Notes: generated by a model from the sequence alone, not told the origin. A stretch of 64,000 nucleotides of DNA from Thermanaerothrix daxensis (GCF_001306145.1 NZ_LGKO01000005.1:124001-188000); one strand, 5' to 3'. Positions 40,138-45,986 are shown, counted from the stretch's first letter. Program-made: numbers and translations.

Positions 40138-42066
40138 GTCTGAATCATTGAATGCCCGTAAGGGCATTAAGACCGACCATCGAACCGTCCGTACCGGCTG
40201 CGGATGGCAAGAACGGTCTGAATCATTGAATGCCCGTAAGGGCATTAAGACTCTTGAATTTCATTGGTTTTCCTACTTTAAATAAATAATTGTCTGAATC
40301 ATTGAATGCCCGTAAGGGCATTAAGACCCGACGCAATTGTGGAAAGTTTCGTTGAGGGGATAATAAAAGTCTGAATCATTGAATGCCCGTAAGGGCATTA
40401 AGACGGAATTGGCTGAGGGTCTGGCAGAATTCGGTTACAACATGTCTGAATCATTGAATGCCCGTAAGGGCATTAAGACAATTCAAGCAGCGTGCCGTTG
40501 ATGAGTTTGTACCAATCTGCGTCTGAATCATTGAATGCCCGTAAGGGCATTAAGACTAATTTTTGCTAATCTATGATTAACGAACCTTAGTGTCAGTCTG
40601 AATCATTGAATGCCCGTAAGGGCATTAAGACTCAAGCGCGCGCACGGCAATTCTCTCTTCGTGACGTCTGAATCATTGAATGCCCGTAAGGGCATTAAGA
40701 CCCACCTCAAATGTCAAAAGTTTCAATAAATAAACCGTAAGGTCTGAATCATTGAATGCCCGTAAGGGCATTAAGACAACCGATAACCCGCGATATCCGA
40801 GGCACTTAACAATGTCTGAATCATTGAATGCCCGTAAGGGCATTAAGACCTACCCAAAGGTCACTCCTGCGGGACTTGCACCCACAGTCTGAATCATTGA
40901 ATGCCCGTAAGGGCATTAAGACCCTCCTCTTTCACAATCTTCACAATGTTTAAGGGGATGAAGAGTCTGAATCATTGAATGCCCGTAAGGGCATTAAGAC
41001 AAAAAGCCGTCGCGTAAGTAACATTCGTACTCGCCTTTTGCGTCTGAATCATTGAATGCCCGTAAGGGCATTAAGACCTGATGCGACCGGGCGTACCATA
41101 CTAACGCCCGCTTATCAGTCTGAATCATTGAATGCCCGTAAGGGCATTAAGACCGATGACCTGAAGAAACTCGACGAGATTGCGGATTACATGGTCTGAA
41201 TCATTGAATGCCCGTAAGGGCATTAAGACCGAAAAGTGTCATCGCGTTGAGGAGTACCACGTTGCAAAGGGTCTGAATCATTGAATGCCCGTAAGGGCAT
41301 TAAGACCGCCGCAGCGCGCCCGCCGCGCGCTGAGCGGCGCGCGAGGTCTGAATCATTGAATGCCCGTAAGGGCATTAAGACATTATCGCATCATGGCTTG
41401 CCGGCTATCCTCAAATCCGTCTGAATCATTGAATGCCCGTAAGGGCATTAAGACGGAAACACCTGCGCCAGGCTGAGCAGGTTGATTTCGCCGTCTGAAT
41501 CATTGAATGCCCGTAAGGGCATTAAGACAGGCTTTTGGTTATTTCTTCAGGCTTGCGCAGCGAGCGGTTGCGTCTGAATCATTGAATGCCCGTAAGGGCA
41601 TTAAGACCACGTCAAAAACTCCGTTTTTCGATCAAGCCCCCCCACAAGTCTGAATCATTGAATGCCCGTAAGGGCATTAAGACAAAGCGAAATCGAGGCA
41701 GCGCTTGCGCTTGCCGACGAATGTCTGAATCATTGAATGCCCGTAAGGGCATTAAGACTCGACTTCTTCCGGCTTGAGAACATCGCGAATGTTGGGCACG
41801 TCTGAATCATTGAATGCCCGTAAGGGCATTAAGACGCGAAAACCCTTAATACTTCGTTCTTTCTCATTTTTTCACCGTCTGAATCATTGAATGCCCGTAA
41901 GGGCATTAAGACCTGTTTTTTTACCCAACCGGCCCCACCTCTCAAAAACCGCAGTCTGAATCATTGAATGCCCGTAAGGGCATTAAGACTTTCATCGTTT
42001 ATAACTTTTGCCGTCCCGATGAAAACCACCGTCTGAATCATTGAATGCCCGTAAGGGCATCTAGAT
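40138..42066 (+). CRISPR. CRISPR array, 26 repeats of 36 bases, 25 spacers
   Basis: The 36-base repeat begins GTCTGAATCATTG and ends GGGCATTAAGAC; its middle is a perfect 7-base stem (AATGCCC / GGGCATT) around GTAA, a Cas6-type hairpin. The last 8 bases (ATTAAGAC) are the likely crRNA 5' tag. Repeats 1-25 are identical; the last (42031-42066) ends CTAGAT instead of TAAGAC, so it is the old end. Spacers are 34-43 bases (mostly 39-41), and none is repeated in the window. cas2 and the leader are upstream in the same orientation, so new spacers should enter at 40138. Some spacers read in frame as protein (4: ELAEGLAEFGYN; 14: DDLKKLDEIADYM), as expected for phage genes. Confidence 0.98.
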
Positions 42067-42606: not shown

Positions 42607-42680
42607 GGGCGGTTAGCTCAGTTGGTTAGAGCGTCGCGTTGACATCGCGGAGGTCGTAGGTTCGAGTCCTATACCGCCCA
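42607..42680 (+). tRNA. tRNA-Val (anticodon GAC)
   Basis: A 74-base cloverleaf: acceptor GGGCGGT pairs with ACCGCCC, the D arm GCTC...GAGC, an anticodon arm TCGCG/CGCGG with loop TTGACAT (anticodon GAC, reading GUC), and a T arm TAGG/CCTA with TTCGAGT. The 3' CCA is not fully encoded (CC then T). Followed by a strong terminator at 42713. Confidence 0.95.
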
Positions 42681-42712
42681 CCTCCCCCGATCCACCCCTC
42701 CATCCCCCACCA

Positions 42713-42750
42713 CCCTGCGCGGCTTTTTGCCGCGCGGGTTTTTTTATTTT
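42713..42750 (+). terminator. Rho-independent terminator after tRNA-Val
   Basis: Stem GCGCGGC / GCCGCGC with CCC/GGG extension around a TTTTT loop, then a run of seven T (42739-42745), A and four more T. Confidence 0.92.
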
Positions 42751-42809
42751 CCGCTCCCTCATTGAGGAATGCAACAAGTGCGGGGATTCCCGCTGTACTG
42801 CGTAACTTT

Positions 42810-42838
42810 TTGAGACAAAAAGCGACTTTACTTATGAA
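42810..42838 (+). promoter_or_regulatory. Candidate promoter of the DUF5666 lipoprotein gene
   Basis: TTGAGA (42810-42815), 17-base spacer, TATGAA (42833-42838). An alternative ECF-type reading (GTAAC-16-CGAC, 42802-42826) is possible but weaker in support. A GAGGAGG site precedes the ATG at 42871. Confidence 0.45.
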
Positions 42839-42870: not shown

Positions 42871-44070
42871 ATGAAATCGCAACCCTGGCGATGGCTGATG
42901 ATGGGAGTCGGCGTCCTGCTGGTATTGGCACTGGGGGGGTGTGCGACCCTGGATGCCAGTGCGGACTTTGATCTGCTGAATGGGTTGAACGGCGCAACGG
43001 CCACTGCAGAGCCCGGCGCAACCCCGACCCGCCTGCCCACCCTGGGCGTGGTTCTCTTCAAAGGCACCCTCGAAAGCCTGAACGGCGACGCGCTGGTCGT
43101 CAGCGGGGTCACCTTCCGTGTGGATGCTCAAACCCTGATACCGCCCGATCTTCAGGTCGGTGAAAGCGTGGCGGTGAAAGCGGTGCTCCTGCCGGATGGC
43201 ACCCGCTACGCCCTGGAGGTCGCTCGCCTGGACAAGACCGCCTCGGAGAGCGAATTTAAGTTCTACGGCGTGGTGGAGAGCATCTCCGACTCGACCTGGC
43301 TCATTTCCGGCGAGTCGGTTCAGGTGGATGCAGAGACCCAAATCGAGCCGGGCATCCAGGTGGGCAGTCTGGTGGAGGTAGAAGGGATTGTGCGCGAGGG
43401 TAACTTGGTGGCGCGCAAGATCCACCTGGAAGATGAGCGGGCCCAGCCGACCCCCGGTCCCAAGCGCAGTACCCCTGATGGTGAGGAGGAGTGGTTTGGC
43501 GTGGTGAGCCAGATCGAGGGCGAGATGTGGACCATCGGCGGGCGCACCGTTCAGGTCACAGCGCAGACGGAGCGCCAGGGCAACCCGGGCATGGGCGACC
43601 TGGTGAAGGTGCACGCTTCGGCCCAGGCCGACGGCACTTACCTGGCGCGCGAGATTGAGAAGATCCGTACACTGCCTACCGCGGGTGCGCCGCAAGCCCG
43701 CAACTTCGAGTTCTACGGCACCGTGCAGAGCATGGACGGAAGCACGTGGGTGATCAGCGGCGTCAGCCTGAGCGTGGATGCCAATACCCGGATCATGGGC
43801 AATCCCGTCGTGGGCAGTCAGGTGGAGGTTAAAGCGCTGGTGCAGTCCGACGGCACTTACCTGGCGGTGGCGATCAAGGTGAAGGAAGGCGGGAGCGGAC
43901 GCTTGGATTTCCGGTCCACGCCTAAGAGCGAGGACGGGCAGGATGACGATGACGATGCCAACCCCACGGTGCTGAGGCCCGGCACGGATGACCCCAAGAA
44001 GGCCGGGGGCGACCGTTCCGGTAACGGCAAAAATCGGGGTGACTCAGAGGAACACGAGGATCGCGACTAG
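42871..44070 (+). CDS. DUF5666 repeat lipoprotein
   Basis: The 399-residue protein has a lipobox (LALGGC, Cys at about residue 25), a Pro/Thr linker, then four DUF5666-type repeats, each starting F(K/Y)G.(L/V).S and containing VxxxTxIxxG..VG..V.V.(A/G) (starting about residues 64, 131, 208, 287). The last ~50 residues are highly acidic/Gly-rich and end EHEDRD. DUF5666 is a β-barrel domain of unknown ligand. It sits directly before an ECF-like sigma gene, on the same strand. Confidence 0.8.
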   Translation: MKSQPWRWLMMGVGVLLVLALGGCATLDASADFDLLNGLNGATATAEPGATPTRLPTLGVVLFKGTLESLNGDALVVSGVTFRVDAQTLIPPDLQVGESVAVKAVLLPDGTRYALEVARLDKTASESEFKFYGVVESISDSTWLISGESVQVDAETQIEPGIQVGSLVEVEGIVREGNLVARKIHLEDERAQPTPGPKRSTPDGEEEWFGVVSQIEGEMWTIGGRTVQVTAQTERQGNPGMGDLVKVHASAQADGTYLAREIEKIRTLPTAGAPQARNFEFYGTVQSMDGSTWVISGVSLSVDANTRIMGNPVVGSQVEVKALVQSDGTYLAVAIKVKEGGSGRLDFRSTPKSEDGQDDDDDANPTVLRPGTDDPKKAGGDRSGNGKNRGDSEEHEDRD

Positions 44071-44141
44071 GGCAAGGGCGGGTAGCCCGGTGCTTCCATG
44101 TTGACCTGTGGGGCGCTTTTTCTTCCGGTTTCTGCATGGGC

Positions 44142-44169
44142 GCGGCCTGTTGTACCGACAACAGGCCGC
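44142..44169 (+). terminator. Hairpin between the lipoprotein and sigma-factor genes
   Basis: A perfect 12-base stem GCGGCCTGTTGT / ACAACAGGCCGC with a 4-base loop. TCTTGC follows rather than a T-run. It may end transcription of the DUF5666 gene or be an operator for the sigma-factor gene. Confidence 0.6.
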
Positions 44170-44253
44170 TCTTGCGCGCCGGATGTGCCTCGCTGCGCTT
44201 GCATTAGGGTATACTGGAAGCGTGGTGGCCCTGCCTGTGACCCTCAAGTCCGA

Positions 44254-44793
44254 ATGGACGAATTTGGCGATCTGATCCCCCGTGCGCGTGCTCTGGATGC
44301 CGAGGCGCTGACGGCCCTGCACGATGCGCTGTACCCGGCCGTATATCGCTACGTGGCCTACCGGCTGGGGGATGGCCCGCTGAGTGAAGATCTGACGGCG
44401 GAGGTCTTTCTGCGCCTGCTAGAGGCCCTGCACGCCGGGCGTGTGCGTGGTTCTGGCTTGCGGGCGTGGTGCTTCACCACGGCGCATCATCTAGTGATGG
44501 ACCACCTGCGCCAGCGCTACCGCCGTCCACAGCAGGGGCTGGAAGATGGTCATCTGGCCGCGGAGGGCGACCCCGAGCAAACGCTGGAAGCCCAGCAGCG
44601 CCTGGAGGCCGTCCAGCGGGCCATGCGCCATCTCACCCCCGAGCAGCAGCACGTGCTCACCCTGCGCTTTTCGCAGGCGATTTCTCTCGAAGAGACCGCC
44701 GCGCTGATGGGCAAAAGCGTCAATGCTGTCAAGGTTTTGCAGTTTCGCGCCCTGGCGGCACTGCGGCGCTGGCTGGAGCGGGAGGAAGCATGA
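44254..44793 (+). CDS. ECF-like RNA polymerase sigma factor
   Basis: A 179-residue sigma-70-family protein. Region 2 (about residues 21-90: YPAVYRYVAYRLGD, DLTAEVFLRLLEAL, RAWCFTTAHHLVMDHLR) recognises the -10 box and core polymerase. Region 4 (about residues 125-175) contains LTPEQQHVLTLRF and SLEETAALMGKSVNAVK for -35 binding. The ATG at 44254 is chosen because the upstream extension lies in the palindrome region. It overlaps the next gene by 4 bases (ATGA at 44790). No self-regulating promoter was found. Confidence 0.88.
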   Translation: MDEFGDLIPRARALDAEALTALHDALYPAVYRYVAYRLGDGPLSEDLTAEVFLRLLEALHAGRVRGSGLRAWCFTTAHHLVMDHLRQRYRRPQQGLEDGHLAAEGDPEQTLEAQQRLEAVQRAMRHLTPEQQHVLTLRFSQAISLEETAALMGKSVNAVKVLQFRALAALRRWLEREEA

Positions 44794-45986
44794 GCGCTAA
44801 ACGCGGTGTGACCCCCGAGATGCTGGAAGCGTGTCTGCGCGCTCTGGAGCAGGGACAGGCGGTAGAGGCAATTCTGGCGCGCTACCCCGCCGAGCAGGCC
44901 GAGGAACTGGCGGCGCTTCTGCGCGTGGCTCAGCACAGCCGCCAGGCCGCTGCCAACCTGCGGGTGCCGCTGGCGGGCCGCGCACGCAGCCGTGCGCTTC
45001 TTTTGGATCGGGCGGCTCGAGAAGCCCTGGCCCCCTCTCGCCCACGCCTGCACCTGGCCTGGGGAAGCCTGGCGGTCCTGCTGGTGCTTTTGCTGAGCCT
45101 GGTGGTCACCACTTTTGCCTCGGCACAGGCCCTTCCGGGCCAGCCGCTCTACCCGCTCAAGCGGGCGGCCGAAGCAGTGCAGTACAACCTGACCACCCGT
45201 CCGGAGGCACGCCTGGCGTTGGCCGAAGCCCTGGATCAGCGCCGCGCCCAGGAGGTGCAGGCCCTCATCCGGCAGGGGCAGAGCGTCGAGGTGCGGTTTG
45301 CCGGCTTTCTGATGCAAGGAGAGACCGGGCTGTGGGAGGCTAACCGCATCCCCCTGCTGTTCTCGCCCAGCCAGGAGGCCCTGGCGCGCTCGCTGGAGGG
45401 GGCTTACGTGGATGTGGAAGGGGTGGTGGAGCCGTTCCTGGGCGTGCGGGTGCAGCGCCTGGAACTGCAACTTTTGAGAGTGCACGGCACCCTGGCCGAG
45501 GTGACCCCGGACTACCTACGCCTGGATGGCCTCACTCTCTGGCTCGGCCCGGCCACCCAGCACCGCGGCACGCTGCGGGTGGGGCAGAGCGTCTCGGCGA
45601 CGGTGGTGCGCCTGGCCGAGGATCGCTTTCTGGCGCTGGTGGTTCAGGGTCAGGGGGAGCGTGCCGGGCCCACTCCGGATTTCTCGGCCACCCCCTGGCG
45701 CGAGTTCCGCCAAAGCCTGCCGAAGGAGTTGCCCACGCGTCCGGCCCAGCTTCCGCCCGCTCAGCGTATCTCACCGCCGGGCCAGGGTAAATCAACGCCT
45801 CAACCCGGCCCCTCGCCGCGCTTTGAAGCCACCCGCGAGCGCACCCAAGAGGCTGAGAAATCGCCGGAGCCGACGCGTACACTGCGCCCCAGCAAGACGC
45901 CAAAGCCCACTGAGGAAAAATCCGAGGCGCACGAAACACCGCGACCCACCAACCCCGAAGCGGGTGATCACGAGGAGCGGGATTGA
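44790..45986 (+). CDS. Membrane anti-sigma factor with DUF5666-like extracellular repeats
   Basis: A 398-residue protein: cytoplasmic part (residues 1-93, no HxxxCxxC zinc motif), one membrane segment (about residues 94-118), then an extracellular part with DUF5667-like PLKRAAEAVQ, two DUF5666-like repeats (about residues 170-215 and 229-290) and a long Pro/Ser/Thr/Lys tail ending GDHEERD. Its ATG overlaps the sigma stop, so it should hold that sigma factor at the membrane. Family assignment of the N-terminus is inferred from context only. Confidence 0.75.
   Translation: MSAKRGVTPEMLEACLRALEQGQAVEAILARYPAEQAEELAALLRVAQHSRQAAANLRVPLAGRARSRALLLDRAAREALAPSRPRLHLAWGSLAVLLVLLLSLVVTTFASAQALPGQPLYPLKRAAEAVQYNLTTRPEARLALAEALDQRRAQEVQALIRQGQSVEVRFAGFLMQGETGLWEANRIPLLFSPSQEALARSLEGAYVDVEGVVEPFLGVRVQRLELQLLRVHGTLAEVTPDYLRLDGLTLWLGPATQHRGTLRVGQSVSATVVRLAEDRFLALVVQGQGERAGPTPDFSATPWREFRQSLPKELPTRPAQLPPAQRISPPGQGKSTPQPGPSPRFEATRERTQEAEKSPEPTRTLRPSKTPKPTEEKSEAHETPRPTNPEAGDHEERD

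What the first reader, a model, noticed from the sequence alone, without database searches (positions are those of the whole stretch)
42871..45986. Sigma/anti-sigma pair with DUF5666 lipoprotein sharing domain and C-terminal tail
The lipoprotein (4 DUF5666 repeats) ends in EHEDRD; the adjacent anti-sigma factor has two DUF5666-like repeats outside the membrane and ends DHEERD. Shared domains and nearly the same last six residues suggest that the two interact, compete for the same ligand, or are cut by the same protease. This could be an envelope sensor circuit not described before.
Basis: partly seen in the sequence, partly recalled or inferred. Interest (0 to 1): 0.6.

Follow-up and report, generated by a model that had tools for sequence, protein, structure and literature searches.

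The report
Sigma-factor circuit with a look-alike lipoprotein
In Anaerolineae bacteria, an envelope-sensing gene switch (a sigma factor and its membrane-bound inhibitor) appears to turn on a neighbouring surface lipoprotein that is built from the same small folded domains and carries the same kind of floppy tail as the inhibitor, which suggests that the switch's product and its sensor deal with the same thing outside the cell.

Summary
A lipoprotein with four DUF5666 domains (42871-44070), an ECF sigma factor (44254-44793) and a membrane anti-sigma factor (44790-45986) lie in a row. The anti-sigma factor has DUF5667 and two predicted OB-fold (DUF5666-like) domains outside the membrane. The tails EHEDRD and DHEERD are real, and HE[DE]RD-stop occurs nowhere else in the 3.0-Mb genome.

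The literal tail is not conserved, even in the same genus. The broader pattern is: across 57 lipoprotein/anti-sigma pairs in Anaerolineae the two tails co-vary (permutation p = 5e-5). In the three other genomes tested, the shared tail repeat was confined to these two genes.

New finding: a promoter CGTAACTTTT-N12-CGACT lies 44 nt before the lipoprotein and is the only exact copy in the genome. Its -35 element and spacer equal those of the Streptomyces sigma-BldN promoter (CGTAAC-N16-CGTTGA), and sigma-BldN is this sigma's nearest solved relative. The motif precedes 43 of 57 lipoprotein genes upstream of such operons. The lipoprotein is therefore very probably the sigma factor's own target.

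Best reading: a BldN-like circuit whose output shares domain and tail with its sensor, as in RsgI/cellulosome systems, allowing ligand-titration feedback. The feedback step is inferred.

The parts
42801..42827 (+). Predicted sigma-dependent promoter of the lipoprotein gene: CGTAACTTTT-N12-CGACT (-35 CGTAAC, N16, -10 CGACT)
   Evidence: Only exact copy in the 3.0-Mb genome. Same motif before 43 of 57 lipoprotein homologues. -35 and spacer equal the BldN motif CGTAACN16CGTTGA (PMC2375139).
42871..44070 (+). Lipoprotein with four DUF5666 (OB-fold) domains
   Evidence: Pfam DUF5666 1.3e-53, four stretches; lipobox LALGGC at residues 19-24; model with four beta barrels matching CusF
43060..43221 (+). 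DUF5666 repeat 1
   Evidence: 48.4 bits
43264..43422 (+). DUF5666 repeat 2
   Evidence: 56.5 bits
43498..43659 (+). DUF5666 repeat 3
   Evidence: 49.7 bits
43714..43878 (+). DUF5666 repeat 4
   Evidence: 54.6 bits
43903..44067 (+). Disordered, hydrophilic, mainly acidic tail of the lipoprotein; ends EHEDRD (44050-44067)
   Evidence: pLDDT under 55 from about residue 341; most hydrophilic last 30 residues among 407 ORFs sampled from this genome
44142..44169 (+). 12-bp perfect hairpin between lipoprotein and sigma genes (possible terminator or attenuator; no T-run)
   Evidence: Fold z-score -4.6; not flagged by the terminator scan
44254..44793 (+). ECF sigma factor, BldN-like
   Evidence: Sigma70 r2/r4; best NCBIfam match BldN family TIGR02952, 154.7 bits, below its 206.45 cut-off; nearest solved structure 6dxo_A, sigma-BldN, E 1.7e-27
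44790..45986 (+). Membrane anti-sigma factor (inferred): helical N-terminal domain, TM helix, DUF5667, two OB domains, disordered tail
   Evidence: gene overlap with sigma and conserved order in 90 non-redundant operons
45048..45125 (+). Transmembrane helix (residues 87-112)
   Evidence: Long hydrophobic helix in the model and in the sequence
45129..45284 (+). DUF5667 helices with the LPGxxLYPxKRAxE motif
   Evidence: 44.4 bits, over cut-off; P116, G117, Y121, K124, E128, R152 and E155 invariant in 18 homologues
45288..45467 (+). OB-fold domain 1 (DUF5666-like)
   Evidence: Model strands 167-226; SSB/PriB-type matches, Z about 8
45471..45650 (+). OB-fold domain 2 (DUF5666-like)
   Evidence: Sub-threshold Pfam DUF5666; a profile made mainly from the lipoprotein repeats finds one DUF5666 stretch in this protein; CusF 2vb2 Z 8.4 over 61 residues
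45687..45983 (+). Disordered P/T/E-rich tail of the anti-sigma; ends DHEERD (45966-45983)
   Evidence: pLDDT about 45-60 from residue 300; HE[DE]RD-stop found in the genome only here and at 44053-44070

Best explanation
This is a self-contained envelope-sensing sigma circuit of Anaerolineae (Chloroflexota). The sigma factor, a relative of Streptomyces sigma-BldN, is held at the membrane by the anti-sigma factor's cytoplasmic helices. An outside event sensed through the anti-sigma's DUF5667/OB-domain/tail part releases it. The freed sigma reads a CGTAAC-N16-CGAC promoter whose main, and in this genome only detectable, target is the adjacent lipoprotein. That product carries the same OB domains and the same kind of disordered tail as the sensor, so it probably binds the same envelope ligand or partner. 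It would act on that ligand and, as it accumulates, titrate it away from the anti-sigma and shut the response off. In some relatives the lipoprotein gene touches the sigma gene, which would also give positive autoregulation. Shown by sequence evidence: gene order, shared fold, promoter, tail co-variation. Inferred: anti-sigma activity, sigma recognition of this promoter, the shared ligand, and the feedback.
For: Promoter: [CT]GTAAC-N16-CGAC lies just before 43 of 57 lipoprotein homologues upstream of such operons. TTTT directly after the -35, which was not part of that search pattern, is also nearly invariant in those 43 sites: 36/43, 43/43, 43/43, 42/43. It is the only exact copy in the own genome at the strict pattern. 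BldN motif CGTAACN16CGTTGA (PMC2375139); sigma nearest to 6dxo_A sigma-BldN and to the BldN family model. Where no lipoprotein gene is present, the motif lies upstream of the sigma gene in 14 of 33 operons. Shared domain. Tail co-variation: 57 pairs, dipeptide cosine 0.57 against 0.40 permuted, p 5e-5; own anti-sigma beats that of the nearest relative, p 0.002, 35 pairs. Tail repeats confined to these two genes: HE[DE]RD, NENENE in two sister genomes, DDNSGK in Bellilinea caldifistulae.
Against: No sequence match of the anti-sigma N-terminus to any known anti-sigma domain. In 14 of 57 lipoproteins the exact motif was not found, partly because of mis-called starts. In some relatives the same motif also precedes unrelated envelope genes: a haem-binding protein and an S8 protease. 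So the regulon is not always this one gene. No ligand is known for DUF5666, and the OB fold binds many things. Tail co-variation could be neutral recombination between low-complexity DNA 2-4 kb apart.
Confidence: 0.6

Rival explanations
1. The lipoprotein is simply an output (an envelope or surface structural protein) of the sigma circuit, with no feedback. The anti-sigma recruited the same OB domain as a generic spacer or sensor, and the tails are alike only because low-complexity repeats spread by recombination between nearby genes.
For: Other envelope genes carry the same promoter in relatives. In the NENENE genomes the two tails share 20-21 nt of identical DNA; over 35 pairs the longest common DNA stretch averages 12.0 against 9.6 for mismatched pairs. 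OB and low-complexity segments are common building blocks.
Against: Tail kinds co-vary in many genomes without long identical DNA (only 8 nt in the window pair). Tail repeats are confined to these two genes although they were sought genome-wide.
Confidence: 0.3
2. The lipoprotein is a co-regulator that contacts the anti-sigma ectodomain directly (RseB-like): it shields the anti-sigma from a site-1 protease until it is drawn off by a ligand.
For: Genetic linkage and shared OB domains that could pair edge to edge. RseB-like protection is a known arrangement for sigma-E (own knowledge).
Against: 33 of 90 operons lack the lipoprotein. The lipoprotein appears to be sigma-induced rather than made with the anti-sigma. 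Both tails are mostly acidic. No RseB-type domain was found.
Confidence: 0.15
3. The shared EHEDRD/DHEERD hexapeptide is a specific C-terminal signal for a shared protease, sorting factor or binding partner.
For: The pattern is found only at these two genes in this genome.
Against: Not conserved in the same genus (G001: GRGDKD and KDNDDDD) or in the other relatives examined; both tails are predicted disordered.
Confidence: 0.03

Closest known systems
sigma-BldN / RsbN of Streptomyces (RsbN is the type of the ASDIII anti-sigma class)
   Same: Closest solved sigma relative (6dxo); promoter with the same -35 and 16-nt spacer; membrane-anchored anti-sigma encoded next to the sigma gene; surface proteins among the targets (chaplins and rodlins for BldN, PMC4255298)
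   Different: -10 element CGAC(T) instead of CGTTGA; anti-sigma carries DUF5667 and OB domains and shows no detectable sequence match to RsbN; DUF5667 is absent from the 14 control genomes, whose list is not printed
sigma-I / RsgI of Clostridium thermocellum
   Same: The anti-sigma ectodomain is a relative of domains in the proteins the sigma turns on: RsgI1, 2 and 4 carry CBM3-like modules and RsgI6 carries a GH10 resembling the target xylanase Xyn10D (PMC4711584)
   Different: Unrelated sigma family, promoter and domains; here the target is a lipoprotein, the domain is an OB fold, and tails co-vary as well
sigma-E / RseA / RseB
   Same: An envelope protein near the anti-sigma gene that may modulate it (own knowledge)
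   Different: No RseB domain; lipoprotein absent from a third of operons; probably downstream of the sigma factor
CusF / SilB copper-binding OB proteins
   Same: OB fold of similar size outside the cytoplasm (Z 8.4 over 61 residues)
   Different: No conserved His/Met metal ligands seen in the repeats; a shared fold shows no shared function

Membership tests
ECF (group 4) sigma-70 factor, BldN-like | Regions 2 and 4 only, with BldN-family similarity | tested here: met
   Sigma70_r2 and r4 over cut-off; 6dxo_A sigma-BldN E 1.7e-27
BldN equivalog family TIGR02952 | Score above the curated cut-off 206.45 | tested here: not met
   154.7 bits: a relative, not a BldN equivalog
sigma-BldN promoter class | CGTAAC-N16-CGTTGA upstream of targets | tested here: inconclusive
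   -35 and spacer identical, -10 differs (CGAC): CGTAAC-N16-CGAC before the lipoprotein gene in 43 of 57 loci
ASDIII anti-sigma factors (RsbN class) | Three-helix cytoplasmic domain that binds sigma 2 and sigma 4, as in 6dxo | tested here: inconclusive
   Helical N-terminus predicted but no sequence match; the structure comparison covered only the OB part
Membrane anti-sigma factor | Gene next to sigma; cytoplasmic N-terminus, one TM helix, extracytoplasmic C-terminus | tested here: met
   ATGA overlap with the sigma gene; TM helix 87-112; arrangement kept in 90 operons; orientation in the membrane inferred
Membrane anti-sigma factor | Inhibits its sigma factor | not testable with these tools
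   Needs a reporter or binding assay
DUF5667 (PF18915) | Above gathering score 27 | tested here: met
   44.4 bits
DUF5666 (PF18914), lipoprotein | Above gathering score 27 | tested here: met
   179.5 bits, four stretches
DUF5666 (PF18914), anti-sigma factor | Above gathering score 27 | tested here: not met
   13.7 bits; anti-sigma homologues exceed it, e.g. G059, G053 and G042, and the model shows two OB folds: a divergent relative
RsgI-type sensor (works like) | Anti-sigma ectodomain homologous to domains of the regulon's products | tested here: met
   OB/DUF5666 in the anti-sigma and in the promoter-linked lipoprotein; functional analogy only
RsgI family | RsgI N-terminal domain and sigma-I partner | tested here: not met
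   No such Pfam or NCBIfam match

The most novel reading that the evidence does not exclude
A sigma circuit in which the output lipoprotein is an evolved mimic of its own sensor: the lipoprotein and the anti-sigma ectodomain share OB domains and a disordered tail, and the tails co-evolve genome by genome (tail type as a private code between the two). The sigma-induced lipoprotein would compete with the sensor for one envelope ligand and so close a negative-feedback loop.
Probability: 0.3. Interest if true: 0.75.

Novelty: new variant of a known kind. Interest (0 to 1): 0.5.

Why it matters
No paper in the searched library mentions DUF5667, and only four mention DUF5666, the two whose passages were read merely listing it. 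This work gives these domains a regulatory context in a large environmental phylum. It supplies a testable promoter and regulon motif for an uncharacterised BldN-like sigma group that is present in cultured type strains (Bellilinea caldifistulae, Longilinea arvoryzae). It also raises a concrete question: do a sensor and its target protein co-evolve disordered tails because they compete for one ligand, or because repeats spread by recombination?

Tried and rejected
1) Exact tail as a conserved signal: rejected, absent even in the same genus. 2) Acidic tails as a general habit of this genome: rejected. Among 407 ORFs from 464 kb of this genome these two have the most hydrophilic ends, and HE[DE]RD-stop is found nowhere else. 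3) Tail repeats as a genome-wide habit in relatives: rejected for the repeats tested. The one outside NENENE hit in G270 is internal to a queG-like gene; DDNSGK in Bellilinea is confined to the two genes. 4) CusF-like copper binding: fold only, no conserved ligands in the repeats. 5) Match of the anti-sigma N-terminus to RsbN by sequence: none; RsbN did not appear in the structure comparison either, which covered only the OB part. 6) Best profile hits of A1 in the PDB come from its acidic tail and are spurious. 7) A genome-contig scan with the anti-sigma protein found nothing; the sigma alignment worked. 8) Paper PMC6101532 (RsbN structure) is not held.

Full report
WHAT IS THERE. The window lies in a 3.0-Mb genome. 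It is therefore an Anaerolineaceae-type member of the Chloroflexota (inference). The locus runs tRNA-Val (42607-42682), a terminator (42714-42738), then the lipoprotein gene (42871-44070), a strong hairpin (44142-44169), the sigma gene (44254-44793) and the anti-sigma gene (44790-45986).

CHECK OF THE OBSERVATION. All the stated features are present. The lipoprotein has four DUF5666 copies, the only ones found in the genome. The anti-sigma's two 'DUF5666-like' repeats are too divergent for Pfam (13.7 bits). They appear as two confident beta domains in an AlphaFold2 model (pLDDT mostly above 90 between residues 101 and 280), and structure comparison places both in the OB fold: CusF Z 8.4 for 226-288, SSB/PriB Z about 8 for 163-228. 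The lipoprotein repeats match CusF as well. Z values near 8 mean a common fold, not a function.

THE TAILS. HE[DE]RD followed by a stop is encoded at exactly two places in the genome, the ends of these two genes. A shuffle of each tail's own residues gives at least 4 identities of 6 with a chance of about 5e-4. In the same-genus relative G001 neither tail ends this way, so the hexapeptide is not a conserved signal. I then asked whether the two tails resemble each other in other genomes. In 35 pairs, and again in 57 non-redundant pairs, the tails of one genome's lipoprotein and anti-sigma are more alike in dipeptide content than mismatched pairs: 0.52 against 0.33, and 0.57 against 0.40, p 5e-5 in both. 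The result holds within single families. The own anti-sigma is also closer than that of the nearest relative (25 of 35, p 0.002). Three whole-genome controls show that the shared repeat is private to the two genes: NENENE in G110 (all 9 hits) and G270 (17 of 18, the last internal to an unrelated gene), and DDNSGK in Bellilinea (all 7 hits). Permutation tests ignore phylogeny, so the p-values are optimistic; the nearest-relative contrast and the genome-wide searches are the sturdier evidence.

THE PROMOTER. Upstream of the lipoprotein is CGTAACTTTTTGAGACAAAAAGCGACT (42801-42827). CGTAAC-N16-CGAC occurs twice in the genome, the other copy lying inside a coding region. The longer CGTAACTTTT-N12-CGACT occurs once exactly. 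In relatives the same element lies just before the lipoprotein homologue in 43 of 57 loci. The TTTT that follows the -35 was not part of that search pattern, yet it is almost invariant in those 43 sites, which argues against chance. The published BldN motif is CGTAACN16CGTTGA (PMC2375139), and sigma-BldN is the nearest solved relative of this sigma. The simplest reading is that this sigma reads this promoter. In G001 and Bellilinea the lipoprotein and sigma genes are 14 nt apart or overlapping, so the promoter would also drive the sigma operon there. In the window a hairpin separates them.

OTHER TARGETS. In relatives the motif also precedes a haem-binding (Haem_bd) protein in Bellilinea and an S8 protease in G039. 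Several other motif hits lie inside or far from genes and may be chance: over 61 genomes the reversed control pattern was found about as often as the motif itself, so only hits placed just before a gene carry weight. In many members of family f12 a conserved 490-510 aa membrane protein gene (no Pfam match in the one scanned) sits between the lipoprotein and sigma genes.

MECHANISM. Shown: gene order, shared fold, promoter, tail co-variation. Inferred from BldN/RsbN and from ECF systems in general: the anti-sigma holds the sigma at the membrane and releases it on an outside signal. Inferred from shared domains and tails: the lipoprotein and sensor see the same ligand or partner, giving titration feedback. 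The nearest working analogy is RsgI of Clostridium thermocellum, whose ectodomains are relatives of domains in the proteins it controls (PMC4711584).

LIMITS. Gene starts are mechanical. Anti-sigma function is inferred from topology and gene order. The N-terminal domain was not matched to any known anti-sigma class. The tail patterns searched were chosen after seeing the tails. DNA-level recombination is a live explanation for tail similarity in at least the NENENE genomes, which share 20-21 nt of identical DNA.

VERDICT. Ordinary as a sigma/anti-sigma pair, unusual in its promoter-linked look-alike lipoprotein and in the tail co-variation. New variant of a known kind, interest 0.5.

Noticed in passing
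window 40138-42066: A CRISPR array: 26 copies of a 36-nt repeat (GTCTGAATCATTGAATGCCCGTAAGGGCATTAAGAC) at about 76-nt spacing, the last copy degenerate.
   Followed up: no
L146 4952-6058 (G000:C1:204952-206058, minus strand): A second DUF5667 anti-sigma gene in the same genome (81.2 bits) with a P-rich tail, and a two-mismatch relative of the promoter (CGTATC-N16-CGTC) at C1:206616-206642, just upstream of where its sigma gene should lie.
   Followed up: partly
L100 6965-6990 and 5270-5295; L105 8405-8430 and 6845-6870: A related but distinct promoter type, TGTAAC-N16-CGTC, upstream of the sigma gene and again after the anti-sigma gene, upstream of a small lipoprotein, in G047 and G049: perhaps a sister specificity.
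   Followed up: partly
L164 3829-5313, L165 3343-4827, L189 3004-4518 and others; L106 8225-9694: A conserved 490-510 aa membrane protein (DNDGYYHIK...YDHHFLFH motif, no Pfam match, possibly a PMT/STT3-like glycosyltransferase) sits between lipoprotein and sigma genes. In G039 it has its own motif copy, back to back with the one facing the sigma gene.
   Followed up: partly
L125 958-1461 (Bellilinea, G004:C21), minus strand: A Haem_bd protein with a CxxCH motif and an acidic tail (RENGEDDD) has the sigma-type promoter 39 nt before its start.
   Followed up: partly
window 44142-44169: A perfect 12-bp hairpin between the lipoprotein and sigma genes, without a T-run; might set the ratio of lipoprotein to sigma mRNA.
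   Followed up: partly
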